Source: Candidatus Iainarchaeum sp. (GTDB lineage: Archaea > Iainarchaeota > Iainarchaeia > Iainarchaeales > JAAZKV01). Taken from it: 52,569 bases of DNA. The notes under the pieces were generated by a model. It had not been told where the DNA came from and made no database searches. It was given only the letters and a program-made list of their open reading frames with translations. This document shows, piece after piece, positions 4,907 to 44,946 of the stretch. The first letter of the stretch is position 1. Each line of letters opens with the position of its first letter. Position numbers and translations under genes: made by a program. Location of the stretch: the NCBI GenBank assembly GCA_012799645.1, contig JAAZKV010000018.1:105519-158087 (forward strand). The letters are read 5' to 3'.

Positions 4907-7645
4907 TTATTTTGGTTTTTTTAATTGTTGTTCTAGTTTTTGTTCTAAAATTTCTAGAAATTCGTCAAGTTTTTCGTCAGGAACTTTGCACCCTGCTGCT
5001 ATTGAATTGTGGACAATTAAACCGTTTGCGAAAAAATTTTTTGTTTGGGGGAGTGATAAATCAATTAAACCTGTTTCTGAACCTAAATCAATTTTTTCTT
5101 GAATTTCAAAAAAAGTTAAATTTTTTGAATTAACTACTCCTTTTAACCAATTAATTTTTGTAAGAGTTTTTTTGTTTAATTTATTTTTATTTCTCAAAAT
5201 TGGTTCAATGAAATATTTGTTCAATGTAAAATAATTTATTCTTTTTGAATTAGGTTGATTGAACAAAAAATTTTTATTAAAAAGATTTGTTATGTTGTTT
5301 TCGTTAACAAAATCCATAATTTCTCCAAAAGTTATTGGAGAAAATAACCCCAAGTTTTTTTTGTTTTTTGATTGTTTTAGTAAATTATTTTTTAACAAAA
5401 TTGCTTTTTTTGTGTTTTTAGTAAAACCGATTTCTTTTTGAAATAATTTAAGTGAATCAAATTCAGTTATATATAATACGAATGAGGGTTTTAAGTATCC
5501 AGATTTTTCTGTAACACTCCTAAAATTTGATTTTATTCCAAATCTTAAAAGCAGTAATTGAATTGTTTTGAGAAATTCTTCATCAACCATTCTAACTGTA
5601 ATAAATCTATTATATACACTTGCTTTGGCATCAAATAATCCTTTAATGTAGTTTGACAAAATTTTGTTTTTTGATTGCATTATTTTTTTTGGAACTTTTA
5701 ATTCACTATTTAATAATTTTGATTCTGGGAAAATGTTTTCAAAAAACACGCCTAAATCAGTGGGAGGCATTTTTGTTTTTTTGAAAGTTCTCATTAAAGT
5801 GGGTTTTGGAGAAAAATTAGTGGAAATTGATTTTTGAATTTTTTCCAAAACTTTTTGTGCTCTTTTTTTACCAATATTTCCTTTTCCTTGAATGTATCCT
5901 ATTATCCACGCAATTTCTTTATTCAAATTTAAATAAATATTTTGGTTGTTGATTAAACTAATTTGTTTTCCTTCAAAATCAATTTTTTTTACTCCTAGAA
6001 TAAAATCTTTTTTGTTTAGGTTTTTTGCTTTTGTTTCAACTAAACCAAGATTTTTGTATTTGAAAAATAAGTGATCTTCTGAAGAAATTATTTGAGTGTT
6101 TTTTGTTTTTAATGAAATCATTTTTTTTCTTTTTGAATTAAAAACCTTGTTACATTTTGAGTTGGTTAAAAAATTGTTTTTTCTGCTTAGTAAATAATCA
6201 TTTTCCAAAATTTCAGAAATTTTACAAATTTCTCCGCATTTTTTTTGCACTAATGTGTTTTTGTGTAAACAATGCCCTCCTCCTTCTACTCCGCTAATTT
6301 TTTTTGAAATTTCTTTGAATGCCGCCCCTAAATTTATTCCTTTTCTTAGGAGGGCGGAGGTTGCTCTTCCTGATACTTTTATTGTTCCGTCAGTGTTTCT
6401 TGCAAGAGCAATTATTGGTTTGTCTTCTTTTATTACTGATCCGTAAAGCATTCCTGCTATTATTCCTACTAATGAATCTTGTATTTCTGTTCCTGCGTCA
6501 AAAAAGTAAAAGTTTTTTTTCTCTTCTACTCCGTGTTCGGTCACGAATTGAATTCCTTTTGCGAGAGCGGTTCGGTGTTCTTGAATTAGTCCTAATAGTT
6601 CGCCGTATGCTCCGTCCATATTTCTATCCCCTAAACATACTTTGAGTCCTATTTCTGGGCGAGCGTGTCTTCCTGAAGAATTTAGTGCGGTAGCAAATTC
6701 TTTTGCGTCACGGAGAGGGGATTTTTTTTCTTCACCTAAAATCGTGTAAACTTCTCCTATCATTTCTTTTATTTTCCATTCCGGAAAATTGTGTTTTGAT
6801 AAATGAATTATTAGTGCGGAAGAGAGTTTCTTTTTTTGCGTATCACTCAAATCTTCATAACTTAACCATTGTTCTGTTAAGGGATCTTTTAGTGGGAGCC
6901 CTAATCCTTGTAAAAAAGAAACACAATTTTCTTGCTCTGCTGTTAGTTCGGGAATTATGGGCGAGGAAGAGAAACACAAATATTGAATTAGTGGTCTTGA
7001 TATTCTTCCATACAATCTCAAATCAATTTTTTTTTCAACAAGCCCTGCACTAATTGCTTCTTCCAAAATTTTTGAGTTCAATCCAATTAGTGCTCCGCTA
7101 AATTCTTGCATATCCCCTACCGCTCCAACAATTGCTAAAGGGGATAAATCAATGTTTTTTGGGTTCATTTCTTTTGCCACCAAGTATGCGAGCCCTGCTC
7201 CTGAAATTTCTTTTCCCCCATCAATTCCAAACAATAAAGGATTCAAGTGATGTTCTAGAGGAATAATTGAATTATTCACTAGTACTGGTTGGTGGTGGTC
7301 AATTATGAAAATGTTTTCTTCACCAAGTTCTTTTACTAAATAATCCATTTGGCCTGAACCAAAATCAACGAACACAAAGTTGTTCCCAAGCGATTTTATT
7401 TGATCAATATTTTCTTTATACAATTGTTTTAAACAAAGAGAAGAAACTTTTTTTCCCTCTCTTTCCAGTGCTTTTATTAGTATTGCTCCGCTACTCAACC
7501 CATCAGCGTCATAGTGATGAATCACCACCACATTTTGGAGGGTTTTGATTTTTGTGGACATTTTTTTTATTTCAGAAAAAAAACCACTCTCGTCCCTATT
7601 AGAAGAAAATTCGCTACAAAATTCATTACAAAACTTGTTGTTCAT
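4907..7645 (-). CDS. RecJ-like DHH/DHHA1 phosphoesterase with intein
   Basis: The 912-residue precursor becomes a 490-residue protein after removal of a 422-residue intein. DHH-superfamily motifs are clear: HHYDADG (residues 43-49), DFGSGQ (94-99), DHHQP (116-120), and the DHHA1 signature GGGH (455-458), which continues after the intein as SIAAG. Family members are Mn2+-dependent single-strand exonucleases or nanoRNases. The size fits the archaeal RecJ/GAN type, which in Thermococcales associates with GINS at replication forks, but exact substrate cannot be told from sequence. The ATG at 7645 follows an AT-rich promoter with TTTAAATT, so a leaderless start is likely. The intein sits inside the active site, so the unspliced precursor should be inactive. 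The basic C-terminus (LEQQLKKPK) closes the protein. Confidence 0.9.
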   Translation of the reverse strand: MNNKFCNEFCSEFSSNRDESGFFSEIKKMSTKIKTLQNVVVIHHYDADGLSSGAILIKALEREGKKVSSLCLKQLYKENIDQIKSLGNNFVFVDFGSGQMDYLVKELGEENIFIIDHHQPVLVNNSIIPLEHHLNPLLFGIDGGKEISGAGLAYLVAKEMNPKNIDLSPLAIVGAVGDMQEFSGALIGLNSKILEEAISAGLVEKKIDLRLYGRISRPLIQYLCFSSSPIIPELTAEQENCVSFLQGLGLPLKDPLTEQWLSYEDLSDTQKKKLSSALIIHLSKHNFPEWKIKEMIGEVYTILGEEKKSPLRDAKEFATALNSSGRHARPEIGLKVCLGDRNMDGAYGELLGLIQEHRTALAKGIQFVTEHGVEEKKNFYFFDAGTEIQDSLVGIIAGMLYGSVIKEDKPIIALARNTDGTIKVSGRATSALLRKGINLGAAFKEISKKISGVEGGGHCLHKNTLVQKKCGEICKISEILENDYLLSRKNNFLTNSKCNKVFNSKRKKMISLKTKNTQIISSEDHLFFKYKNLGLVETKAKNLNKKDFILGVKKIDFEGKQISLINNQNIYLNLNKEIAWIIGYIQGKGNIGKKRAQKVLEKIQKSISTNFSPKPTLMRTFKKTKMPPTDLGVFFENIFPESKLLNSELKVPKKIMQSKNKILSNYIKGLFDAKASVYNRFITVRMVDEEFLKTIQLLLLRFGIKSNFRSVTEKSGYLKPSFVLYITEFDSLKLFQKEIGFTKNTKKAILLKNNLLKQSKNKKNLGLFSPITFGEIMDFVNENNITNLFNKNFLFNQPNSKRINYFTLNKYFIEPILRNKNKLNKKTLTKINWLKGVVNSKNLTFFEIQEKIDLGSETGLIDLSLPQTKNFFANGLIVHNSIAAGCKVPDEKLDEFLEILEQKLEQQLKKPK
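5006..6271 (-). mobile_element. Intein in DHH phosphoesterase (degenerate LAGLIDADG)
   Basis: The intein runs from Cys459 (CLHKNTLV) to Asn880 (GLIVHN) of the precursor, with Ser as the +1 extein residue. Splicing residues look intact: Cys1, a block-B SEDH, the penultimate His and the terminal Asn. The central domain is a two-motif LAGLIDADG endonuclease, but both catalytic positions are changed. Motif 1 reads GYIQGKG (Asp to Lys at intein residue 130) and motif 2 reads GLFDAKAS (Asp to Lys at 216, Gly to Ala at 217). It should therefore splice but not cut DNA. Confidence 0.9.
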
Positions 7646-15234: not shown

Positions 15235-18200
15235 ATGAAACATTTTTTCAAAATCAGTTTAATAATTGTTCTACTATTTTCAACAATATTTTTTTCTGGT
15301 TGTGGAGAAATGACTCGGACAGAAAAAACTCTTTGTTATAATTTAACAAGTAAAAGTTTTGCATACATCCCTAATTGTGAAACTGAAAATAGTTGTTATG
15401 AAAAAGTAAGTGAAATGTTTAACACTGATCTTGGGTATGAACAAGAAATTGAAATGTATAAATTAAAAAATAGTTTAGCGAGGAGTTGGTTTTATTATAA
15501 TAAAGCAATTAAAGAAATGAAAAAAGCTCCAGAGTATTGTTTGAATGATGAGGGAGGAAAATTAAGCAGTGCAATAAATCAAACTTCCCAATACCTTGAT
15601 TATTCCTTTATTGAACTTGATGAAGCAATAAAGAAAAGTTTTGAAATAGTGATAAATGAAGAAAAATTACTCACAGTGCAAGAAATAGATTTGGTGAAAG
15701 AAGAGGAATTATTTGATTCATTGATTGAATTAAGACAAATTAGTTCAGAAATTGATTCAGGACCAACAAATAGCGGAACTTATTATTCTTATTATTATGA
15801 AAGAGTAAAGGAATTCAACACACTTGGGATACGAAAAGGGTTTGGTCAATTAATTGAAGAGGATTCAATAACAATAAAAATAGGTAGAGAAATTGGAAAA
15901 GAAGTTTACACCGGATTTGATTTTAAAGAAATTAAAATTCCTTTCATAGGGACAAGTTCCAAAAATATACAAGAAACAATAGAAAATATTTTGTTTAATA
16001 AACAAAATTTAAGAGAACTTGAAAGATTCCCACTCCACGAATTTACTTTACTATACTCCACTGTTGGGGGAGCAAATAATTCAGCAATAAAAAGATTTAG
16101 TGATTTAGTAAAAAGAATTAGTGTTACTAAGAAAAAAACCCAAAACAATTTAACAAATACTTGGAAAAATATTGAAATTGAAAAGAAAAAACTAAACGAA
16201 CTAAAATCTAATCTAAAAATTATTCAAAAATATTCATTGATTCGAGAAGAATTATTGCCTCAAGAAATCAGTGGAGAAAAGAAAATTGATGAAATAATTA
16301 ATATCATTGAAAATGAATACATTAATTTAAAAAAAGAAAAAAATTCATCAAAACTCACTCTTGGGGCAGAACTTTCTCGCGCCAAAAATCTTTACGAAAA
16401 TTTGGTGACCACAAACAACAAACTTGATTTTGAAAATAGTTCGGAATTAAAAAAAATGGAAGAAAAGTGTGATAAAAAAGCAATAGAAATTGCTTCAACC
16501 CCGCTCGGGTTAAGTTCCCTTGAAAGCATTTATTCAGAACAAATATTTTATTCAAAAAAAGTCACTTCAACAAAGAATGAAGAAAAATTAAATTATTGTG
16601 TGGAAATGATAAAAACAAACAAAGAATATGTTTTGGGTTTAACTGATTATGAACAATTAGAAACACAAAAAACGAATGAAATTAGGGAATGTTTTGAACA
16701 TTTAGAAAACATTTTCAACCAAATCAATATTCCTCAATTAGAAAATTTGTTTGAAAATTTAAAAAAAGAAAAAGTGACAAGTGAAAACATTATTTATTTT
16801 TATGAATCTTGTAATTCAATAAAAACCCAAGCGGAGAATGAATTAAAATCAAACCCAGAAATAAAAGAACTCCTGAATGAATACAAAAAAACTAATGTAT
16901 TAAAAGAAAAAATAAGAACAATGAAAGAAAATTTCGTTGAAAATGTAGAAGAACTTGAAACCAAATCAAAAACATTTGATAATTATTTCAATAAAGAAAA
17001 TTTAATAGAATTGTATTCAATAAAAAATGAATTATTGAATAAAATTAAAAAAAACAATAATGAAATTGAAAAATTAATTGAAACAAAACTCATTAATTAT
17101 TTTAAAAATAACTACCAATTAGTGATTTTATCAAACACAATTCCTACAACAAACGAGGATATTAATTCTACAGTGCGAGTAAATATCAATAATCCTTTTT
17201 GGGAAATTAACACCCCTTTTAGTATAGAAATAAAACAACCCCTAACTTTAACTAAACCCAATTCTTGTTTAACAAATTACATTAGTGGAGAAAAAACAAC
17301 AATTTTTTTTAATTGTCTTGATTTTGGGAACAATACTTTGGATTTTTTTTCAAAATTTATAATAAACACTGTGGAGAAAGAAAAAATAATATACGCAACC
17401 ACTGATATGAGTTTGATTCAAAAAAATATTAAATTAATAACCGAAAGCACTTTTCCAAAATTATTAATTACTACAAACAAAAACGAAAAAATCAACATTA
17501 TTGTTGATGATAAAGAAATTGATTATTTTTTTGAGGACAATAAATTAAAATTTTATATTGAAAATGCATCAAACAAATCAAACATTAATGTTTATTATTA
17601 TCTAAAAAATTTGATCAGCGAACAAACTGATTTAATTTCGGAAAAAGAAATGGGGACAAGTAAAGAATTTACTTACAAATCAATTGTAAAAAATAATTAT
17701 GAAAAAGAACTAATTGGAACAATAATTTTCCCCATACACATAAATAATTTTGTGAACAATATTGAAATTTATGATGACAAAAAAATCCAGAAAAAAAATG
17801 AAGTGATTGATAAGAAACTTGTACTAAAAAACATTGATTTTTTAGCAAAAGAAGAAAAAAACTTTTTGATCAAAATAACTATTTCAAACAAATATGAATA
17901 TTATTTTGATACACTTAATTCCATAAAAAACGAATTAATTACATACGGAGAAACTAAACTTGTTGAAGAAATAAATAAAACATTAGAGAAAATTGAATTA
18001 ATTGAAGAGAAAGAAATACAAAATTTAATAAAAAAAGCAGAAAACGAATTAAATAATTTAAAAGAAAAATTTGAAGAGGAACAAAACCTAAATTTAATTA
18101 AAGAAAACCTAATTGAAGAAATAAAAAAGTATGAAGAAAAAATAAATGATTTAGAAAAATATGGGTTGATTGAAGAAAAAGAATTATTGTTAAAAAGAAT

Positions 18201-19047
18201 TGATTTGGCCAAAACTTTACTCGAATCAACAAAAAGAAATGATATTTTGAAAGGAATAAGTTTGTTACAAAATGAACCTCTTTCAATTAGTGAAGAAATA
18301 AAAAAAGAAGCGGAAAAATTATTCAAAATAGTAAAAGAAAGTGCAGGAAAAGATAATGTGTTAATTAAACTAGCACAAGCTTTTTTTAATAAAAAAGAAG
18401 AATTTGATGAGTGGAAAGAAATTGATTTAATAAAATCAAAAGAAATATTTTTAGAACTAAAAAATTTGTACACAAAATATTTTGAGGATAAAAATAAATT
18501 ATGGACAAATTTAGATCCAAACAAGAGTGAAAAAATATCAAATATGCTAAAAGAGTGCAGCGAATATTTAGATTTTCTTGAACGAGAATTATCCATTGAT
18601 GAAAGTGAATTAATCAAAGCAAAATTTATTCAACCAATCACTCTTTCTAGAATAAAAAAACTAAAATTGGAACTTGTAGAAATAGAAAATGCTCCTAACT
18701 CTATTGAAAAGGAAGAGAAAGTGTTTGAAATTAGAGGGGAACTAAAAGCAGCAGTGGATTCAATAAAAAAACAAACAATTAATTTATTCAATAAATCAAT
18801 TGATGATAAAGTTGAAGAAGGAGTGTTGAGTAGGGCAAAAAATTATATTGATTCTAACAAATTCATTTTAGCATTTTTATCTCTAAAAAACACTACGACA
18901 AAAAATAATGGATTGGCTCCTTTTATGGGCCTAATTCCTATTGGAGTTATTGTAATTTTGGCTTTAATTTTGAAAAAAATATTGAAGAAAAAAGAAAGTG
19001 AAGAAAATAATAACAAAAAAATTGTTTTACAAGAGTGGGAAAATTAA
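15235..19047 (+). CDS. 1270-residue surface protein: lipobox-like start, coiled coils, C-terminal anchor
   Basis: The N-terminus is a signal peptide ending in a lipobox-like FFSGC (Cys23), which suggests a lipid-modified or processed secreted protein. Residues about 25-110 contain four further Cys. Long Lys/Glu helical regions (about 300-680 and 900-1200) flank a beta-rich centre (about 690-890). The C-terminus has one transmembrane helix (GLIPIGVIVILALILKK) followed by a basic cytoplasmic tail. It would therefore be anchored at both ends, or at the C-terminus only if Cys23 is not lipidated. Its length and coiled coils suggest a stalk or tether outside the cell. No known domain was recognised. 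TTTTTAAATAAC at about 15206 is the likely TATA box for a nearly leaderless ATG at 15235. Confidence 0.8.
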   Translation: MKHFFKISLIIVLLFSTIFFSGCGEMTRTEKTLCYNLTSKSFAYIPNCETENSCYEKVSEMFNTDLGYEQEIEMYKLKNSLARSWFYYNKAIKEMKKAPEYCLNDEGGKLSSAINQTSQYLDYSFIELDEAIKKSFEIVINEEKLLTVQEIDLVKEEELFDSLIELRQISSEIDSGPTNSGTYYSYYYERVKEFNTLGIRKGFGQLIEEDSITIKIGREIGKEVYTGFDFKEIKIPFIGTSSKNIQETIENILFNKQNLRELERFPLHEFTLLYSTVGGANNSAIKRFSDLVKRISVTKKKTQNNLTNTWKNIEIEKKKLNELKSNLKIIQKYSLIREELLPQEISGEKKIDEIINIIENEYINLKKEKNSSKLTLGAELSRAKNLYENLVTTNNKLDFENSSELKKMEEKCDKKAIEIASTPLGLSSLESIYSEQIFYSKKVTSTKNEEKLNYCVEMIKTNKEYVLGLTDYEQLETQKTNEIRECFEHLENIFNQINIPQLENLFENLKKEKVTSENIIYFYESCNSIKTQAENELKSNPEIKELLNEYKKTNVLKEKIRTMKENFVENVEELETKSKTFDNYFNKENLIELYSIKNELLNKIKKNNNEIEKLIETKLINYFKNNYQLVILSNTIPTTNEDINSTVRVNINNPFWEINTPFSIEIKQPLTLTKPNSCLTNYISGEKTTIFFNCLDFGNNTLDFFSKFIINTVEKEKIIYATTDMSLIQKNIKLITESTFPKLLITTNKNEKINIIVDDKEIDYFFEDNKLKFYIENASNKSNINVYYYLKNLISEQTDLISEKEMGTSKEFTYKSIVKNNYEKELIGTIIFPIHINNFVNNIEIYDDKKIQKKNEVIDKKLVLKNIDFLAKEEKNFLIKITISNKYEYYFDTLNSIKNELITYGETKLVEEINKTLEKIELIEEKEIQNLIKKAENELNNLKEKFEEEQNLNLIKENLIEEIKKYEEKINDLEKYGLIEEKELLLKRIDLAKTLLESTKRNDILKGISLLQNEPLSISEEIKKEAEKLFKIVKESAGKDNVLIKLAQAFFNKKEEFDEWKEIDLIKSKEIFLELKNLYTKYFEDKNKLWTNLDPNKSEKISNMLKECSEYLDFLERELSIDESELIKAKFIQPITLSRIKKLKLELVEIENAPNSIEKEEKVFEIRGELKAAVDSIKKQTINLFNKSIDDKVEEGVLSRAKNYIDSNKFILAFLSLKNTTTKNNGLAPFMGLIPIGVIVILALILKKILKKKESEENNNKKIVLQEWEN

Positions 19048-30140: not shown

Positions 30141-30872
30141 TTAGATGTCATAATCTTCTATTTTTTTTATTACTATTCCGTTTTCTGTTATTTGTAGTGG
30201 GTGCAAGTCTTCTGAGTGTTTTGTTGCTCTCATTTTTCTTATGTGTAGTGTTCTGTTTGATTGGGTTCCTAGCCCCATGTAGTGTAGGATTATTACTCCG
30301 TCAGCAACAAATTCTTCTACTCCATATTTTCCAAATTGTTTTGAATCTTCATTGATTTCTGTTGTCATTACTGTTGTTACTCCTGCTCTTGATAATAAGT
30401 ATACTAATTTTAGTATTGCTTTTCTTATGTCGTGTTCGTTTTGAAAATTTAATCCGAGTGCGGGGATTGAATCTATTACTACTCTTTTTGCTCTTATTTT
30501 TTTTATGGTTTTCATTATTTCTAATAATAATTTGTCTAGATCAAATCCTGTTGCTGGGAGTGTAAATTCTTCGTCGCTCGGTATTCCTATTTTTGAAGTT
30601 GTCCCATCTATTATTTTTATTAGTTCTTGGTCTTCATATTGTCTTAAATTCCATCCAAATCGTAACATATCTTCTCTGATTAGTTCTGGTCTTTCATCAA
30701 GTGTTACGTATATTCCTGCTTCTCCTAGTTTTGCTCCGTTTATTAAAAATTGTGTTGCGAATATTGTTTTTCCTGTTCCTGGTCCTCCGCTGATTAAGAA
30801 ACTTCTTCCTTCTGGTAATCCCCCTTCAATTAGTTCATCAAATCCGGGGATGTTTGTTTTTATTCTGTTCAT
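30141..30872 (-). CDS. KaiC-like RecA-superfamily ATPase (single domain)
   Basis: The 243-residue protein is a single KaiC domain: NIPGFDELIEGGLPEGRSFL, Walker A SGGPGTGKT, catalytic Glu segment YVTLDERPELI, Walker B KRVVIDSIPAL and the C-terminal block GTQSNRTLHIRKMRATKHS. Archaeal stand-alone KaiC-like ATPases associate with signalling and appendage regulation; no partner is encoded next to it, so its role is open. ATG 30872 (MNRIKT) is preferred over 30881. Downstream is a long T-rich gap. Confidence 0.88.
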   Translation of the reverse strand: MNRIKTNIPGFDELIEGGLPEGRSFLISGGPGTGKTIFATQFLINGAKLGEAGIYVTLDERPELIREDMLRFGWNLRQYEDQELIKIIDGTTSKIGIPSDEEFTLPATGFDLDKLLLEIMKTIKKIRAKRVVIDSIPALGLNFQNEHDIRKAILKLVYLLSRAGVTTVMTTEINEDSKQFGKYGVEEFVADGVIILHYMGLGTQSNRTLHIRKMRATKHSEDLHPLQITENGIVIKKIEDYDI

Positions 30873-30984
30873 TTTTATCAATTTTATATTGTTTTTTCTT
30901 GTTTATTAATCTTTTCTTATTATTTTTTTTGTTTGTTTTGTTCAAAAAGGTGTTTGGTTATTTTTTTTGACAATTTTTTTTTAA

Positions 30985-32160
30985 TTATTTTTTATTTTTT
31001 TTAATGAATTTTTTGTATCCTGTCCATACTATTGCGATTATTACTATTAGTATGATTAGGTTTAGGATTAGGTTTGGTTGTTCGTTTGTTTTTTCTTGGT
31101 GTGGTAGTGTTAGTTCTATTGTTTTGGTTTTTGTTTTTGCATCACTATCTTGGTAAGTTATTTTTAGTGTTATTGTTTTTGTTTCTTCGTTTGTTGTTAG
31201 TTTTGTTTTTATTGAGTCAATATCGTTTGGTTCTATGCTTCCAATGAATTGTTTTTCTTTATCTATTGTTCCGTTTCCACTTATTTCTATCATTGTGTAC
31301 TCTGCTTTTCCTTCTCCGCTGTTGAATAATTCTATTGTTATTTCAGTTTGGTTTCCTATTGTTTTTGTTTCTTTTATTGCTGCGTCAAGTTTTACTTCTC
31401 CTGATATTTTGAATCCGATGTATGATGTGTCTGTTATTCTTGTTCCTGATGGGTTTCTGTACGATATTTTTACTGGTAAGGTGTAATTTTTTAGTGTTGC
31501 GTTTCTGTTTACACTAATTTTTAGTGTGGTTGTTTTTGTTTCGCTTGGCATTATTTTTTCAATGTGTGTTGTTGCTGCTCCTAGTGGGGTTATTTCTCTT
31601 TCAATTATTGCTCCTGATGCGGTGATTGTTCTATCTTCTTGTAGTTCTGTTATTATGTCGTATGCTGTGCTTGTTCCAACATTTTGTATAGTAAAAGTTA
31701 TTTCTTTTTCTTCTCCCGGAATTAGTTTTTCTGTTGAGATATTAATTATTTTTAGTGTTGGTTCTTTTCCACTAATTATTATTGGATAGTTGCGTGTTAT
31801 TCCGTTTGGTTGATCTTTTGTGCTGGTTGTTATTGGTATTTCGTAAGTTTTGTTTTCTGCTGATGGATCAATGTATACTATGAATTGTGCTAGTGCTTTT
31901 CCGTATTTTTGTATGTCTCCAATATTTTTTGTATTTTCTTCTTTGATTGTGAATGGGTATTCATTTTTTATTTCAAGAGTCACTTCTTTTTGAATAATAT
32001 TTTCATTATTTTCTAGTTGGATTAATAGGGTGGTTGTTGTTCCTGGGATTGCTGGGCTTGGATTGTAATTTATTTGGGTGATGTCCGGCACTGCTGCGAA
32101 TGCAACTCCCATTAATAGAATTATGGTTAGTAGTATAGTTAGTAGTGTTGTTTTTTTCAT
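30985..32160 (-). CDS. COG1361-like surface protein with C-terminal anchor
   Basis: This 391-residue protein has a signal peptide (LLTILLTIILLMGVAFAAVP), three or so CARDB/Ig-like repeats with the recurring plan PGTTTTLLIQLENNEN, PGEEKEITFTIQNVGTS and IGNQTEITIELFNSGEG, and a transmembrane helix (LILNLIILIVIIAIVWTGY) with a short Lys tail. It is expected in the cell envelope, perhaps as S-layer-associated stalk. AAAGGTGGAG gives a strong ribosome-binding site. The RelA/SpoT homologue ends 42 nt upstream on the same strand, so read-through is possible. Confidence 0.85.
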   Translation of the reverse strand: MKKTTLLTILLTIILLMGVAFAAVPDITQINYNPSPAIPGTTTTLLIQLENNENIIQKEVTLEIKNEYPFTIKEENTKNIGDIQKYGKALAQFIVYIDPSAENKTYEIPITTSTKDQPNGITRNYPIIISGKEPTLKIINISTEKLIPGEEKEITFTIQNVGTSTAYDIITELQEDRTITASGAIIEREITPLGAATTHIEKIMPSETKTTTLKISVNRNATLKNYTLPVKISYRNPSGTRITDTSYIGFKISGEVKLDAAIKETKTIGNQTEITIELFNSGEGKAEYTMIEISGNGTIDKEKQFIGSIEPNDIDSIKTKLTTNEETKTITLKITYQDSDAKTKTKTIELTLPHQEKTNEQPNLILNLIILIVIIAIVWTGYKKFIKKNKK

Positions 32161-32202: not shown

Positions 32203-33948
32203 TTATATTCTCTCGGCTTGTTGGATTGAAGGGATTTTTTCTATTTTTTCTAAGAGTTTTTCCAGTTTTTGGTATGAAGATATTTCTATTTTTAGTATTG
32301 CTTCTAAGTATCCTGTTTTTTTTATTTTAAAGTTTGTTGATTTTAGTATTGCTCCGCTCTTTTTTATTTCTGTTAATATTTCTCCAAGTAATCCTGCTCT
32401 TTCTATTGCAGTTATTTTTATTTCTGTTGTTCCTTTTTCTTTTTCAAAAGCAATATCCACTAATTTATTTTTTGGTAGTAGTTGAATATTTTTGCAATCT
32501 TTTTTGTGTATTATTATTTTTCTTTTTGTTGTTTTTACTCCTATCACATCTTCTCCTGGTAGTGGGTGGCAACATTCAGCCATTTTTATTTTTTTAATTG
32601 ATTGTCCTTTTTGAGGGGTTGTTGTTTTTTTCGGAGAGGTTTTTATTTTAAAATAATTTTTTATTTTTGATTTAGCTTTTTCTGATACTACATAGTTTAA
32701 CCAGTTTTTTTGTATTGTTGGTTTTGCTGCAGTTATTATTTCTACTTTGTCAAGGTTTTTTAGTTTTGTTTCAATTGGCGCGATTTCCCCGTTTATTTTT
32801 GTTTTAAATATTTTTTTTCCGATTTCTGTGTGTACCGCGAATGCAAAATCTATTGGGGTTGCTTCTTGTGGTAACACAATTGCTTCATTTTTTGGAGTGA
32901 ATGCAAATATTTTTTTTCCAAGGTTTCTTTTTTTGAAAGTATCTTCTCCTGCTGATTTTTGCCATTCTATTAGTTGTCTTTCCCAGCTTATTTCTTTTTC
33001 CAGTTCTTTGAATTTTTTTACTCTTTTGTATTGCCAGTATAAACTTGATTCTATTCGTAGGTGTTGTTCCCAGGTTCTTATTTGAAATTCAATAATGTCT
33101 TTGTTTCTAATTACTGCGGTGTGTATGCTTTGGTATCCGTTACTTTTTGGTTTTGCGATGTAATCATCAAATGCTTCTTGTATTATTTCATATTTTGAAT
33201 GAACTATTCCTAGTGCTTCGTAGCATTGTTTTTCTTTTTCACAAATTATTCTTATCCCATATAGATCATACATTTGGTTAAATGACACTCTTTTTAGTTT
33301 TTCATATATTGATTTAAAGTTTTTTGGTCTTCCGTGCACTTTTATTTTTATTTTTTCTTTTTCAAATAGTTTTTCCACTTCTTTTTGTATTTGTAAAATT
33401 AGTTCTTCTCTTTCTTTTCTACTTTTTTTCACCATTTTTTTTATTTTTTGGTATGCTTGTGGGTTTTGTTGTTTGAACACATAATCTTGTATTTGCCAAT
33501 CAACTCCGCTTATCCCATATTTTATTGCGAGAGGGGAGTAAATATTTTCAGCTATTTTTATTTTTTGTTCTTTTTCTTCTTCGTTTATTTCTCTTAAATT
33601 TATTGCGCATTCTGTTACTTTGATTATTATTGGTTCAAGGGTGGTGGTGATAGTGGTTATTAGTTCGCTTAGGGTAGTGTTATCAATTTTGTTAATGTTT
33701 GTTTCAATTATTTCTTCAATATTTACACATTCTTTCGTGATTTGCGCGGTTTTTTCTCCATATTTTTCTTTTATTTCTTCGTAAGTTGTTTTGTTTTTGT
33801 ATAGTGTGTTTTGTAATATTGCTGCGAGTATTGCTTCTTCTTCTAATTGTTTTTGTTTTAGGATAGTTATTATTTTTTCTAATTTTTCAATGTTTTCGTT
33901 TTCGTTTCTTTCTTTGACAAACCTTAGTGCATTTTCTTCTCGGTTCAT
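32203..33948 (-). CDS. RelA/SpoT homologue: (p)ppGpp synthetase with decayed HD domain
   Basis: This 581-residue protein has the full long-RSH order: HD region (about 35-130), synthetase (about 200-310), TGS (about 346-407), Cys/His conserved region (AECCHPLPGED, 458-467) and ACT (about 508-581). Synthetase motifs are kept: GRPKNFKSIYEK, YDLYGIRII, DDYIAKPKSNGYQSIHT and EFQIRT. The acidic EAFDD motif before YIAKPK resembles the EFDD of RelA-type synthetases. In the HD region the metal-binding HDxxED is replaced by QNTLYKN (46-52), so hydrolysis should be lost. It thus looks like a synthetase-only enzyme, likely ribosome-associated. ATTATTAAAAAAG (about 33975) predicts leaderless ATG 33948. 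RSHs are uncommon in archaea. Confidence 0.92.
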   Translation of the reverse strand: MNREENALRFVKERNENENIEKLEKIITILKQKQLEEEAILAAILQNTLYKNKTTYEEIKEKYGEKTAQITKECVNIEEIIETNINKIDNTTLSELITTITTTLEPIIIKVTECAINLREINEEEKEQKIKIAENIYSPLAIKYGISGVDWQIQDYVFKQQNPQAYQKIKKMVKKSRKEREELILQIQKEVEKLFEKEKIKIKVHGRPKNFKSIYEKLKRVSFNQMYDLYGIRIICEKEKQCYEALGIVHSKYEIIQEAFDDYIAKPKSNGYQSIHTAVIRNKDIIEFQIRTWEQHLRIESSLYWQYKRVKKFKELEKEISWERQLIEWQKSAGEDTFKKRNLGKKIFAFTPKNEAIVLPQEATPIDFAFAVHTEIGKKIFKTKINGEIAPIETKLKNLDKVEIITAAKPTIQKNWLNYVVSEKAKSKIKNYFKIKTSPKKTTTPQKGQSIKKIKMAECCHPLPGEDVIGVKTTKRKIIIHKKDCKNIQLLPKNKLVDIAFEKEKGTTEIKITAIERAGLLGEILTEIKKSGAILKSTNFKIKKTGYLEAILKIEISSYQKLEKLLEKIEKIPSIQQAERI

Positions 33949-34615: not shown

Positions 34616-34915
34616 TTATTTTCTTTTCTTTTTTGGTGCACTTTTCTTTTTTGTTGCTTTTTTTGTTGTTTTTTTAGCTGGTTTTTTTGCAGGTTTCTTT
34701 TTTGGTGCACTTTTCTTTTTTGTTGCTTTTGTTACTTTTTTTGTTGTTTTTGTTTTCACACTTTTTTTAGGTTTATTAATGGTTTTAGGTTTAGTGCTTT
34801 TTGAAGATACAGTTTCTCCTTTCTCTTCTTGAAGTTCTTTTCTCATTTGTTCAATTAGTTCTTTAACCGACATTTTCTTTTCAAATACCATTTGGATTTC
34901 CTCCAATAAACTCAT
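34616..34915 (-). CDS. Lys/Ala/Pro-rich basic protein (histone H1-like tail)
   Basis: The 99-residue protein has a short helical N-terminus (MSLLEEIQMVFEKKMSVKEL IEQMRKELQEE) and a long basic tail built from KKSAPKKKPAKK and TKKATKKKSAPKKKRK repeats. At the DNA level the tail includes a 37-bp direct repeat. Such tails bind DNA or rRNA non-specifically; the N-terminal helix may dimerise. TTTTTATATAC 21-26 nt upstream supports the leaderless ATG 34915, rejecting the longer frame to 34951. It shares its terminus with the 27-residue peptide. Confidence 0.75.
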   Translation of the reverse strand: MSLLEEIQMVFEKKMSVKELIEQMRKELQEEKGETVSSKSTKPKTINKPKKSVKTKTTKKVTKATKKKSAPKKKPAKKPAKKTTKKATKKKSAPKKKRK

Positions 34916-35094
34916 CAATTTACGCTTTAGGTATATAAAAACCTTTCCCAAAAATTAAGCTTTATACATAATATTTTTCTTTTTCGCCCTTATCCTTATT
35001 TGTTTTCATTTAAATGAAGATTTATGTAGAAGTTTGGTGTTTTTTATTTAGTGTTTTTTGAATGTTTTTTTGTTTTTTTGGACGGGGGAGAAAT

Positions 35095-41483: not shown

Positions 41484-41805
41484 ATTATGTTTTTTCACAT
41501 TTTTTATTTTATTTTTATTTTTTTTATTTTATTTTTATTTTTTTGTCCTTAATTGAATTTTTTTCCTAATTTTTTTAATTGTTTTTTTTAGTTTTTCTAA
41601 CTTTTTTTGTATTTGTTTTCCAATATTTTTTTAGTTTTTCTTTTTTTGTTTCTTTTTTGGTTTGTTTTTTGGTTTGTAGGAGTTTTTCAAGTAATCTTTA
41701 TAAACTACTTCGCGTTTGTTCTTTTTACATTTTGTTTTTTTAAATTTTTTTTTGAAAAAAGTTTTGTTTGTTTAGGATTTTGTTTTTTGCCGTAGAGTGA
41801 GTTTT
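41484..41805. other. Intergenic 320 bp before nrdD
   Basis: T-rich spacer with a 20-nt direct repeat (TTTATTTTATTTTTATTTTT-like) after the glyA stop. TTTATAAAC (41698-41706) is the clearest TATA box and predicts an nrdD leader of roughly 75-80 nt. No gene seen. Confidence 0.4.
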
Positions 41806-44800
41806 ATGTCTTTACCAGTTTTTGTTACAAAAAGAGATGGTTCTCGTGTTTCTTTTAATTCAGAAAAGATCGCGGTAGCTATTTGGAAAGCAGTTGTTGC
41901 TGTTGGGGGTTCGGATAGAGAGAAAGCAAACAATATTGCAAAAATTGTGGTGGAAAAAATTGCTGAAAGATTTCCCAACCAAGAGAGTGTTGCTGTTGAA
42001 TCAATTCAAGATATTGTAGAAGAAATTTTGATTAAAGAGGGACATGATAAAACAGCCAAGGCGTATATTTTGTATCGTAATCAAAGAGAGTTGATGAGAA
42101 GAACAGAGGATATGGTGAATAATTTTGAAGTAGTTAATCAGTATATTACTCAAGAGGATTGGAGAGTTAAAGAAAATTCTAATATGGGTTATTCTTTACA
42201 AGGAATGAATTTCAATATTGCGGGTAGAGTGGTTTCTAATTATTGGTTGGGTAGAATTTATCCAAAAGAAATTGCAGAGGCACACAAATCAGCAGCTATT
42301 CATATTCACGATTTGGATATTTTGGCAACTTATTGTGTGGGTTGGGATTTGAAACAATTATTGATTGAAGGTTTTACTGGGGTGCGTGGTAAAGTTGCGT
42401 GTAAGCCCGCTAAACATTTCAGATCAGCGCTTGGTCAAATAGTGAATTTTTTTTACACTATGCAAGGAGAAGCAGCAGGGGCTCAAGCGTTTTCAAGCTT
42501 TGACACTTACTTAGCTCCGTTCATTAGGTATGATAATTTATCAGAAAAAGAAGTGGAGCAAGCATTACAAGAGTTTGTTTTTAATTGTGCAGTTCCAACA
42601 AGAGTAGGGTTTCAGTGTCCTTTCACTAATATTACTATGGATTTAGTTGTCCCTAAACACATTGCTAATGATCCAGTGATTATTGGTGGAAAAGCAATGG
42701 AAGCAACTTATGCCGATTTTCAAAAAGAAATGGATTTGTTGAATAGAGCATTTGCAAAAGTAATGACTGAAGGGGATGCGATCGGAAGGCCTTTTACTTT
42801 TCCAATCCCTACTTACAACATCACTCCTGATTTTGATTGGGATAATCCTAATTTGGATTCAGTGTGGGAAATGACAGCAAAGTATGGGATTCCTTATTTC
42901 GCCAATTTTGTTAATTCTGATATGAGTCCTGATGATGCGAGAAGTATGTGTCTTAGTGGGAGTGAATTCATTTTAGTTAAGATTAATGGTAAAATAAAAA
43001 ACACTACTATTTTTGAATTAGTATCAACTTTTGGGAGCGAAGGTTGGTGCGAGAATAAGTTTGATGTGCAGGCCCTTTCTTTGAATGAAAATTATTTAGT
43101 TGAGTGGGTTCCTATAAAAAATTTTTTAAAAACTAGGTTAACTGGTTTGGTACAAATTAGAACCGAAGATGGGAAACTGTTCAAAGCTTCTTCAAATCAC
43201 CCTGTTTCAGTTCTCACTCCGCAAGGAATAATTGAAAAAAATGCAAAAGACATTCAGTTAGGAGATTATTTATTAAGTTTAAAATCAGGAGAGGGTGTTT
43301 TAAATAAAGAGTATCAAAAAATAGGTTCCTATTCTCTTGATGAAGATTTAGCTTTCTTTTTAGGTTATTTTACTGCTGATGGGACTTACTTAAAAAAACC
43401 CCACTCTTCTTTATTGAGTGGAATGCAATTCACTTTCAATGCATTAACTTTAACTAATTTGGATAAAATAAAATCAATTTGTTTAAACAAGTTTAATTAT
43501 TCTTTGAAAGAGAAAAAGGACTCTCGATACAATTTGAATTATGGTTATTTTTATAATTCAGAATTAGCTAATTTATTTTTTAGTAATGGGTTTGAGAAAC
43601 ACGGAAAAGTTTCTTCCCTAATTTTTAACTCTCCTAAGAGTGTAATAAATTCTTTTTTAGAAGGGTTCTTTGCAGTGGGTGGTTATGCAAAAAAACAAGA
43701 GGTTCATATTAATGATAAAGTTCTTGCAAAAGAATTAGTTTTATTATATTCTTTAATAGGAAAACCTGTTTTTTTCAAAGAGCGAGAAAATTCTCAAGTA
43801 ATTAGATTAATGCATAAGAAAGGTAATTTGAATAAGAGTGAGTTAGGTGTTAATTGTTTGGATGAGTTAGTTTTAGGATTGAACAAGAGTGGAATGGTTG
43901 GTTTGGCCTCAATTCAAAAATACTCTACTCAAACAAAATTATTCAAAAAAATACGACAAGGTGCTTTTTATCCTGTAAGAGTTTGTGAAATAATTGAATC
44001 AAATAATACTGAAGATTTTTTTGATGTTGAATTGGAAAGAAACCACAGGTTTGTTCATTCACTTGGATCAATAACCCATAATTGTTGCAGATTGCGTTTG
44101 GATAATAGAGTGTTGAATAAAAGAGGGGGTGGATTGTTTGGAGCTAATCCTTTAACAGGAAGTATTGGAGTGGTTACAATTAATTTACCAAGAATTGGTT
44201 TTTTATCAAAAACCGAAGAAGAGTATTTTAACACTCTTAGTCACTTAATGGATTTAGCAAAAGATTCTTTAGTGATTAAAAGAAAAACAATTGAAAGATT
44301 AACAAACCAAGGGTTGTATCCTTATTCTTCTTTTTATTTAAGAGGAGTAAAAGAAATTACTGGTTCTTATTGGGCAAATCATTTTTCAACAATTGGATTG
44401 CTTGGAATGAATGAATCATTAATTAATTTTTTAGGAAAAGATATTACTTCAAGAGAAGGGCATGCGTTTGCAGTTAAGGTTCTAAATTTTATGAGGGATA
44501 AAATTCAAGAGTATCAAAATGAAACAGGGGATGTTTTTAATTTAGAAGCAACTCCTGGTGAAGGAACTGCGAGAAGATTTGCTTGGTCAGATAAAAAACA
44601 ATTCCCTACTATTGTGGTAGCGAACGAGAGTGCTTTTAAGAACAAAAATGCTGCTCCATATTATACAAATTCTTCACAACTCCCAGTAAATTACACTGCT
44701 GATTTATTCAAAGCACTGGATTTACAAGATCCTCTTCAAACCCTTTACACTGGGGGAACAGTTTTTCACATTTTTTTAGGAGAAAAAGCCCCTTCAAAAG

Positions 44801-44946
44801 AAGCAGCAAAACAATTAATTAAAAAAATAACTAACAATTACAAAATGCCTTACTTTTCTCTAACCCCAAGCTTTAGTATTTGTCCAATCCACGGATATAT
44901 TAGTGGAGAACACGAGTATTGTCCAATTTGTGACAAAGAAAATTAA
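41806..44946 (+). CDS. nrdD: Class III ribonucleoside-triphosphate reductase NrdD, intein-containing, lacking glycyl-radical segment
   Basis: The 1046-residue precursor gives a 668-residue mature chain after intein removal. It has an ATP-cone (VTKRDGSRVSFNSEKIAVAI ..., first 90 residues), then the NrdD barrel (HIHDLDILATYCVGWDL, FVFNCAVPTRVGFQCPFTN, MCCRLRLDNRVLNKRGGG once spliced, GSIGVVTINLPRIG). The C-terminal zinc element is present (SICPIHGYISGEHEYCPIC), but the protein stops at DKEN. Family members continue with EVYSRVVGYxRP, which contains the essential radical Gly. That segment is a separate gene at 45286-45438. ATG 41806 is chosen; GTG 41797 is in frame. Anaerobic metabolism is implied. 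Confidence 0.95.
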   Translation: MSLPVFVTKRDGSRVSFNSEKIAVAIWKAVVAVGGSDREKANNIAKIVVEKIAERFPNQESVAVESIQDIVEEILIKEGHDKTAKAYILYRNQRELMRRTEDMVNNFEVVNQYITQEDWRVKENSNMGYSLQGMNFNIAGRVVSNYWLGRIYPKEIAEAHKSAAIHIHDLDILATYCVGWDLKQLLIEGFTGVRGKVACKPAKHFRSALGQIVNFFYTMQGEAAGAQAFSSFDTYLAPFIRYDNLSEKEVEQALQEFVFNCAVPTRVGFQCPFTNITMDLVVPKHIANDPVIIGGKAMEATYADFQKEMDLLNRAFAKVMTEGDAIGRPFTFPIPTYNITPDFDWDNPNLDSVWEMTAKYGIPYFANFVNSDMSPDDARSMCLSGSEFILVKINGKIKNTTIFELVSTFGSEGWCENKFDVQALSLNENYLVEWVPIKNFLKTRLTGLVQIRTEDGKLFKASSNHPVSVLTPQGIIEKNAKDIQLGDYLLSLKSGEGVLNKEYQKIGSYSLDEDLAFFLGYFTADGTYLKKPHSSLLSGMQFTFNALTLTNLDKIKSICLNKFNYSLKEKKDSRYNLNYGYFYNSELANLFFSNGFEKHGKVSSLIFNSPKSVINSFLEGFFAVGGYAKKQEVHINDKVLAKELVLLYSLIGKPVFFKERENSQVIRLMHKKGNLNKSELGVNCLDELVLGLNKSGMVGLASIQKYSTQTKLFKKIRQGAFYPVRVCEIIESNNTEDFFDVELERNHRFVHSLGSITHNCCRLRLDNRVLNKRGGGLFGANPLTGSIGVVTINLPRIGFLSKTEEEYFNTLSHLMDLAKDSLVIKRKTIERLTNQGLYPYSSFYLRGVKEITGSYWANHFSTIGLLGMNESLINFLGKDITSREGHAFAVKVLNFMRDKIQEYQNETGDVFNLEATPGEGTARRFAWSDKKQFPTIVVANESAFKNKNAAPYYTNSSQLPVNYTADLFKALDLQDPLQTLYTGGTVFHIFLGEKAPSKEAAKQLIKKITNNYKMPYFSLTPSFSICPIHGYISGEHEYCPICDKEN
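42949..44082 (+). mobile_element. Intein in NrdD at the active-site Cys
   Basis: The 378-residue intein spans CLSGSEFILV to SITHN, interrupting ARSM/CCRLRL. Splicing residues are intact: Cys1, block-B SSNHPV, the THN end, and Cys +1. It encodes a LAGLIDADG endonuclease: motif 1 LGYFTADGTY keeps its catalytic Asp (intein residue 144), while motif 2 LEGFFAVGGY has Gly in place of Asp (244). The site lies at the finger-loop Cys region of class III RNRs. Confidence 0.92.

What the first reader, a model, noticed from the sequence alone, without database searches (positions are those of the whole stretch)
32203..33948. Archaeal RelA/SpoT homologue with acidic synthetase motif and dead hydrolase
All five RSH domains are present. 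The HD metal motif is replaced by QNTLYKN, and the synthetase carries EAFDD before YIAKPK like the EFDD of monofunctional RelA. (p)ppGpp signalling is rare and poorly understood in archaea, and a synthetase-only RSH implies another hydrolase or a different way to turn the signal off.
Basis: partly seen in the sequence, partly recalled or inferred. Interest (0 to 1): 0.8.

Follow-up and report, generated by a model that had tools for sequence, protein, structure and literature searches.

The report
Archaeal stringent-factor synthetase without its hydrolase
This archaeal gene encodes a RelA-like enzyme predicted to make the starvation alarm (p)ppGpp but unable to destroy it; related archaea carry a separate destroying enzyme next to a tRNA-charging gene, and this organism's family appears to have lost it, which raises a clear, testable question about how the alarm is switched off.

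Summary
Window 32203-33948(-) encodes a 581-aa long RSH with HD, synthetase, TGS, zinc-finger and ACT domains. Its HD catalytic residues are gone and its synthetase residues are intact. Two corrections: the motif aligns as AFDD, not EFDD (only the second acidic position matches RelA), and a sixth domain, the ~90-aa helical domain, is missing. The gene sits in archaeal context and has close homologues in 8 of 9 other genomes of its family, so it is not contamination.

What comparison adds: 62 of 87 genomes of the phylum carry this type (A). 35 of those 62 also carry a second RSH (B) with the reverse pattern: perfect hydrolase residues, dead synthetase, no zinc finger, directly downstream of argS in 12 of 13 loci. 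A, B and bacterial Rel/RelA/SpoT are three separate clades, so the RelA-like Asp arose independently of proteobacterial RelA. B never occurs without A, but 27 genomes have A only. These include all nine A-bearing genomes of the window's family and near-complete genomes elsewhere, where argS abuts leuS or alaS directly.

Best reading: an archaeal RelA/SpoT-like division of labour, with the hydrolase lost in this lineage. Enzymatic activity and (p)ppGpp itself are inferred, not shown.

The parts
32203..33948 (-). Long RSH, type A (synthetase-only), 581 aa
33511..33948 (-). Pseudo-hydrolase HD domain (residues 1-146), all-helical fold kept, N-terminus shortened, catalytic residues lost
   Evidence: Pfam HD_4; site table; model pLDDT mostly 80-95
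33793..33813 (-). QNTLYKN (46-52) in place of HDxxEDT metal/catalytic motif
32944..33426 (-). (p)ppGpp synthetase domain (about residues 175-335), all active-site residues checked kept
   Evidence: Pfam RelA_SpoT E 4.9e-29; R241, K243, D264, R269, Y308, H312, E323, Q325 equivalents (RelSeq numbering) in 41/41 type A proteins
33322..33333 (-). GRPK (206-209), ATP-binding G-loop
33163..33174 (-). AFDD (259-262), position of the EXDD/RXKD motif
32731..32916 (-). TGS domain (345-406); H373 aligns to the invariant bacterial TGS His (E. coli H432)
   Evidence: Pfam TGS E 2.1e-14; H in 41/41 A
32593..32730 (-). Short linker (407-452) where bacteria have the helical domain
   Evidence: spacing 84-102 in 41/41 A vs 159-192 in 34/37 bacteria
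32479..32592 (-). Zinc-finger domain (453-490), C459 C460 H481 C485, TTKRK signature
   Evidence: invariant in A
32206..32436 (-). ACT/RRM domain (505-581)
   Evidence: Pfam ACT_4 E 5e-12
30985..32160 (-). CARDB-domain secreted-type protein, same strand, 42 bp downstream of RSH
   Evidence: Pfam CARDB; near A in 11/21 loci
30141..30881 (-). KaiC-like ATPase, same strand; next to or within a few genes of type A RSH across the order
   Evidence: Pfam KaiC E 8.8e-78; 20/21 A loci, 0/13 B loci

Best explanation
The gene is a ribosome-coupled, synthetase-only stringent factor (type A) of an archaeal two-gene RSH system. By inference from conserved residues, deacylated tRNA on a starved ribosome is sensed by the TGS, zinc-finger and ACT regions, and the synthetase domain transfers pyrophosphate from ATP to GDP/GTP to make (p)ppGpp. 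In the order at large, a second RSH (type B, co-located with argS) with an intact HD site and dead synthetase would hydrolyse it. The window's family has lost type B, so it makes (p)ppGpp with no HD-type hydrolase of the RSH superfamily; removal would then rest on a general enzyme (two Nudix proteins and one HDIG-type HD protein are the candidates seen), on tight ribosome gating of synthesis, or on dilution. Shown here: sequence anatomy, complementary residue conservation in A and B, phylogeny, distribution, synteny. Inferred: activities, ribosome dependence, the alarmone itself.
For: Synthetase residues 41/41 in A; HD residues 23/23 in B with E323 changed to K in 21/23 and no zinc finger. Domain conservation is reciprocal: mean pairwise identity SYN 0.45 vs HD 0.27 in A (0.65 vs 0.34 in the window's family); HD 0.45 vs SYN 0.36 in B. 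Three clades bacteria/A/B, 100/98, 99/93, 100/100. B only where A is: 35/35, chance 1.1e-7. argS-B adjacency 12/13. Empty argS site in A-only genomes: G056 argS-alaS 41 bp apart, G051 about 610 bp with no B, G057/G036/G067 argS-leuS 19-46 bp apart. No B and no second HD_4 protein in any of 10 genomes of the family; chance of missing a universal gene in all ten through incompleteness about 1e-8. Fold search: ribosome-bound RelA is the best match.
Against: No biochemical data; (p)ppGpp had not been detected in any archaeon as of a 2021 study (PMC8646023). The own genome is 89% complete and its argS lies at a contig end, so the empty site is seen in relatives, not in the window's own genome. E. 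coli relA+ without spoT is generally lethal (PMC4154780), so a synthetase with no hydrolase is physiologically awkward. The helical domain is absent, so ribosome engagement cannot be identical to bacterial RelA. The 301-343 stretch of the model is low confidence.
Confidence: 0.66

Rival explanations
1. The window's family keeps an active synthetase and has replaced the lost hydrolase by an unrelated enzyme, most simply one of its two Nudix proteins (RppH/MutT-like) or its HDIG-type HD protein, so turnover is complete but non-homologous. (This refines the best explanation more than it opposes it, so the two confidences overlap.)
For: Own genome holds two Nudix proteins and one HD (PF01966) protein. 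Nudix ppGpp hydrolases are known in bacteria (own knowledge).
Against: None is near the RSH gene or at the empty argS site. Both families occur in all 14 control genomes, so presence says little.
Confidence: 0.35
2. The synthetase domain makes a different product or uses other substrates (for example pGpp, pppApp or a nucleotide on tRNA), so a (p)ppGpp hydrolase is not needed.
For: The motif linked to GDP/GTP preference varies widely in type A (EFDD, AFDD, KFTD, HFDD). Some RSH enzymes make pppApp (PMC6491832, title).
Against: All catalytic residues checked match (p)ppGpp synthetases. Type B, never found without A, keeps every residue of a (p)ppGpp hydrolase.
Confidence: 0.12
3. In this family the RSH is a decaying relic on its way to loss after type B was lost.
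For: The HD domain drifts fast (0.34 identity), and one of ten family genomes lacks the gene (G055).
Against: Synthetase, TGS and zinc finger are strongly conserved in the same family (0.65, 0.66, 0.81), with no stops inside the gene in 9 genomes.
Confidence: 0.07
4. Contamination: a bacterial gene on a misbinned contig.
For: None found; long RSHs are typically bacterial.
Against: The same contig carries RadA, aTrm56, TFIIE-alpha, RPA and KaiC-type genes. The protein clusters with its own family (100/100) inside an archaea-only clade. Synteny is conserved in relatives.
Confidence: 0.01

Closest known systems
Monofunctional RelA of beta/gamma-proteobacteria (E. coli RelA)
   Same: Dead HD, intact synthetase, TGS His, zinc finger, ACT; Asp at the third position of the EXDD motif; best PDB match by sequence and fold
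   Different: Separate clade; AFDD not EFDD; no helical domain; archaeal host; no partner SpoT in this family
Bifunctional Rel
   Same: Overall order HD-SYN-TGS-ZFD-ACT
   Different: HD catalytic residues lost, helical domain lost, RXKD replaced
Hydrolase-only SpoT with pseudo-synthetase (PDB 7qpr; I recall it as Acinetobacter SpoT)
   Same: Functional analogue of type B: active HD, dead synthetase; pairs with a RelA
   Different: Type B lacks the zinc finger, lies beside argS and is an archaeal clade; it is not in the window genome
RelA/SpoT annotations in DPANN archaea (Li et al. 2021, PMC8407392)
   Same: Same kind of gene reported in 41.7% of Woesearchaeota, 69% of Diapherotrites and others, inferred bacterial origin
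   Different: In the passages read, that paper did not separate synthetase and hydrolase types nor note loss of the hydrolase
Small RSHs of archaea (Atkinson et al. 2011, PMC3153485)
   Same: Precedent for a synthetase without hydrolase (Methanosarcina acetivorans)
   Different: Those are single-domain; that paper stated long RSHs were lacking in archaea

Membership tests
Long RSH superfamily | HD + synthetase + TGS + ACT in one chain | tested here: met
   Pfam, all above gathering scores
Long RSH superfamily | Synthetase active-site residues | tested here: met
   all checked sites kept
Long RSH superfamily | Zinc-finger (CC) domain with CC/H/C ligands | tested here: met
   C459 C460 H481 C485
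Long RSH superfamily | Helical domain between TGS and ZFD | tested here: not met
   spacing 86 vs 159-192; three sampled bacterial RSHs also have it short, so it is not strictly defining
Monofunctional RelA subgroup (beta/gamma-proteobacteria) | Inactive HD | tested here: met
   H53, H77, D78, E81, D82, D144 all replaced
Monofunctional RelA subgroup (beta/gamma-proteobacteria) | EXDD motif | tested here: not met
   AFDD in the window and all nine family members with the gene
Monofunctional RelA subgroup (beta/gamma-proteobacteria) | Falls in the RelA clade | tested here: not met
   separate clade 99/93; AU p 0.040 against joining
Monofunctional RelA subgroup (beta/gamma-proteobacteria) | Ribosome- and deacylated-tRNA-dependent synthesis | not testable with these tools
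   ligand residues conserved only
Bifunctional Rel/SpoT | HDxxED and ADRLHN hydrolase motifs | tested here: not met
(p)ppGpp synthetase by activity | Makes (p)ppGpp from ATP and GDP/GTP | not testable with these tools
   needs enzymology

The most novel reading that the evidence does not exclude
A whole archaeal family (and several other lineages of the order) runs ribosome-triggered (p)ppGpp signalling with no RSH-type hydrolase at all, after losing an argS-linked hydrolase paralogue; signal decay there uses an unrecognised mechanism.
Probability: 0.4. Interest if true: 0.8.

Novelty: new variant of a known kind. Interest (0 to 1): 0.64.

Why it matters
(p)ppGpp had not been detected in any archaeon as of 2021. 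Here is a long RSH pair with a clean, residue-by-residue division into synthetase (A) and hydrolase (B), separate from the proteobacterial RelA/SpoT split, genetically tied to an aminoacyl-tRNA synthetase, in small archaeal genomes. It gives concrete proteins to test whether archaea have a stringent response on an archaeal ribosome, and natural hydrolase-loss lineages that ask how cells survive a synthetase alone, a state that is generally lethal in E. coli.

Tried and rejected
Contamination: rejected by archaeal neighbours, clade and synteny. 'EFDD like RelA': only half holds, alignment gives AFDD. Descent from proteobacterial RelA: AU p 0.040, weak on its own, but bacteria, A and B are each one side of a strongly supported branch. 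A hidden hydrolase in the own genome: HD_4 and B-profile searches find only the gene itself and weak TGS/ACT-type matches. A replacement hydrolase at the empty argS site: intervening genes are LemA, DUFs, MscS or ABC transporter. Literature searches for an archaeal stringent factor found only Li 2021, Atkinson 2011 and the 2021 nucleotide survey.

Full report
WHAT IS THERE. The ORF at 32203-33948 on the minus strand is intact: 581 aa, ATG start. Pfam gives HD_4, RelA_SpoT, TGS and ACT_4, all above their gathering scores. The best solved relatives are E. coli RelA on the ribosome, then mycobacterial and B. subtilis Rel. A model built with 36 bacterial relatives (mean pLDDT 84, pTM 0.52) has as its best PDB match RelA bound to the 70S ribosome; the overall domain arrangement is uncertain. 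RSH, a CARDB-domain protein and a KaiC-like ATPase lie in a row on one strand with gaps of 42 and 103 bp, so they may be an operon.

RESIDUES. I aligned 41 type A proteins, 23 type B proteins and 37 bacterial proteins (numbering of RelSeq). In the window H53, H77, D78, E81, D82 and D144 are K, Q, N, Y, K and E, so the hydrolase is dead. Every synthetase residue checked (R241, K243, S247, D264, R269, the YIAKPK Lys, N306, Y308, Q309, S310, H312, E323, Q325, R327) is kept. The TGS His and the four zinc ligands are kept in 41 of 41 type A proteins. The EXDD/RXKD tetrad aligns to AFDD, constant in the nine members of the family; elsewhere in type A it varies. According to Atkinson et al. (PMC3153485) EXDD goes with GDP preference and RXKD with GTP preference; what AFDD does is unknown.

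A MISSING DOMAIN. The distance from the TGS His to the zinc-finger Cys is 84-102 residues in all 41 type A proteins and 159-192 in 34 of 37 bacteria. Type A therefore lacks about 90 residues, the helical domain. Three sampled bacteria (Polynucleobacter, a gammaproteobacterial MAG, a spirochaete) are also short, so this is not unique.

A SECOND, COMPLEMENTARY RSH. Searching 87 genomes of the phylum with the window protein and then with a profile of the distant hits showed two paralogues. Type B keeps H53, R44, H77, D78, E81, D82, D144 and N148 in 23 of 23. It has lost the synthetase (E323 to K in 21 of 23, Q325 in 23 of 23, R241 in all), mostly lost the TGS His, and has no zinc finger. Conservation is reciprocal: in A the synthetase is better conserved than HD (0.45 vs 0.27), in B the reverse (0.36 vs 0.45). 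By my reading of the hit lists, 62 genomes have A and 35 have B, all 35 among the 62 (chance 1.1e-7).

PHYLOGENY. On synthetase plus TGS (330 columns, 78 rows), bacteria, A and B are each one side of a branch (100/98, 99/93, 100/100). The window sits with its own family (100/100). Proteobacterial RelA is inside the bacteria; forcing A to join it is rejected at p = 0.040. So a RelA-like state (dead HD, Asp at the third motif position) arose independently of proteobacterial RelA. The tree is unrooted; whether A and B come from one transfer followed by duplication, or from two transfers, is open. Li et al. inferred a bacterial source.

GENOMIC CONTEXT. Across 21 A loci a KaiC-like ATPase lies beside A or within a few genes in 20, and in none of 13 B loci. 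Type B lies directly downstream of arginyl-tRNA synthetase, same strand, in 12 of 13 loci, often with leuS or alaS next to it. Part of this is general synteny of the order, but the A-KaiC and argS-B pairs persist where other neighbours differ.

LOSS OF THE HYDROLASE. None of the ten genomes of the window's family has B or any HD_4 protein other than A; incompleteness alone would give this with probability about 1e-8. Where argS is readable in A-only genomes, its neighbours close up without B: family members G056 (41 bp to alaS), G051 (about 610 bp), G050 and G052 (other genes), G055 (ABC transporter; this genome lacks A too); other families G057, G036, G067 (19-46 bp to leuS). In the window's own genome argS ends 158 bases from a contig end, so there the absence rests on the whole-genome search. 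B presence changes at least seven times on the tree of A, which fits repeated loss of B but does not by itself give direction.

HOW IT MOST LIKELY WORKS. Shown: anatomy, conservation, phylogeny, distribution, synteny. Inferred: deacylated tRNA on the ribosome is sensed through TGS, zinc finger and ACT (the contacts mapped in E. coli: TGS with the CCA end, ZFD and RRM with the A-site finger, PMC5829649); the synthetase makes (p)ppGpp; B, where present, removes it. In the window's family removal must rest on something else. The own genome offers two Nudix proteins (RppH/MutT-like) and one HDIG protein, none linked to the RSH gene. E. coli relA+ without spoT is generally considered lethal, although suppressed relA alleles survive (PMC4154780), so either synthesis is tightly gated or another enzyme degrades the signal.

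KNOWN OR NEW. RelA/SpoT in such archaea is on record from annotation (PMC8407392), so the presence of the gene is not new. I found no earlier report in the open-access library searched of the A/B division, its argS link, the missing helical domain or the hydrolase-free lineages; subscription papers and preprints were not searched. (p)ppGpp was stated as undetected in any archaeon in 2021 (PMC8646023). I rate it a new variant of a known kind.

LIMITS. Most are incomplete, fragmented assemblies. No activity was measured.

Noticed in passing
L033-L051, L057-L060 (type B loci); e.g. L195:4334-6046(+) argS followed by B: Hydrolase-only RSH directly downstream of arginyl-tRNA synthetase in 12 of 13 loci, often with leuS or alaS alongside: a possible coupling of alarmone breakdown to tRNA charging.
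   Followed up: partly
window 30141-30881(-): KaiC-like ATPase gene near the type A RSH in 20 of 21 loci across many families; function unknown, could be a partner.
   Followed up: partly
L052, L056 (genomes G007, G008, family f4): A third RSH form of ~460 aa with an unrecognisable HD region and intact-looking synthetase motifs.
   Followed up: no
G066:C9:326768-327067, G074:C8:55706-56038, G086:C2:3009-3446, G070:C4:148361-148795, G002:C22:4359-4613: Scattered HD_4-only proteins or fragments (possible small alarmone hydrolases) and short synthetase proteins in related genomes.
   Followed up: no
window 41797-44946(+) and 4907-7645(-): Inteins inside an anaerobic ribonucleotide reductase (NrdD) and inside a DHH/DHHA1 phosphoesterase.
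   Followed up: no
window 34616-34951(-): Lysine-rich 111-aa protein with a KKSAPKKKPAKK-type tail, resembling a histone-H1-like DNA-binding tail.
   Followed up: no
window 15235-19047(+): 1270-aa protein with no Pfam match.
   Followed up: no
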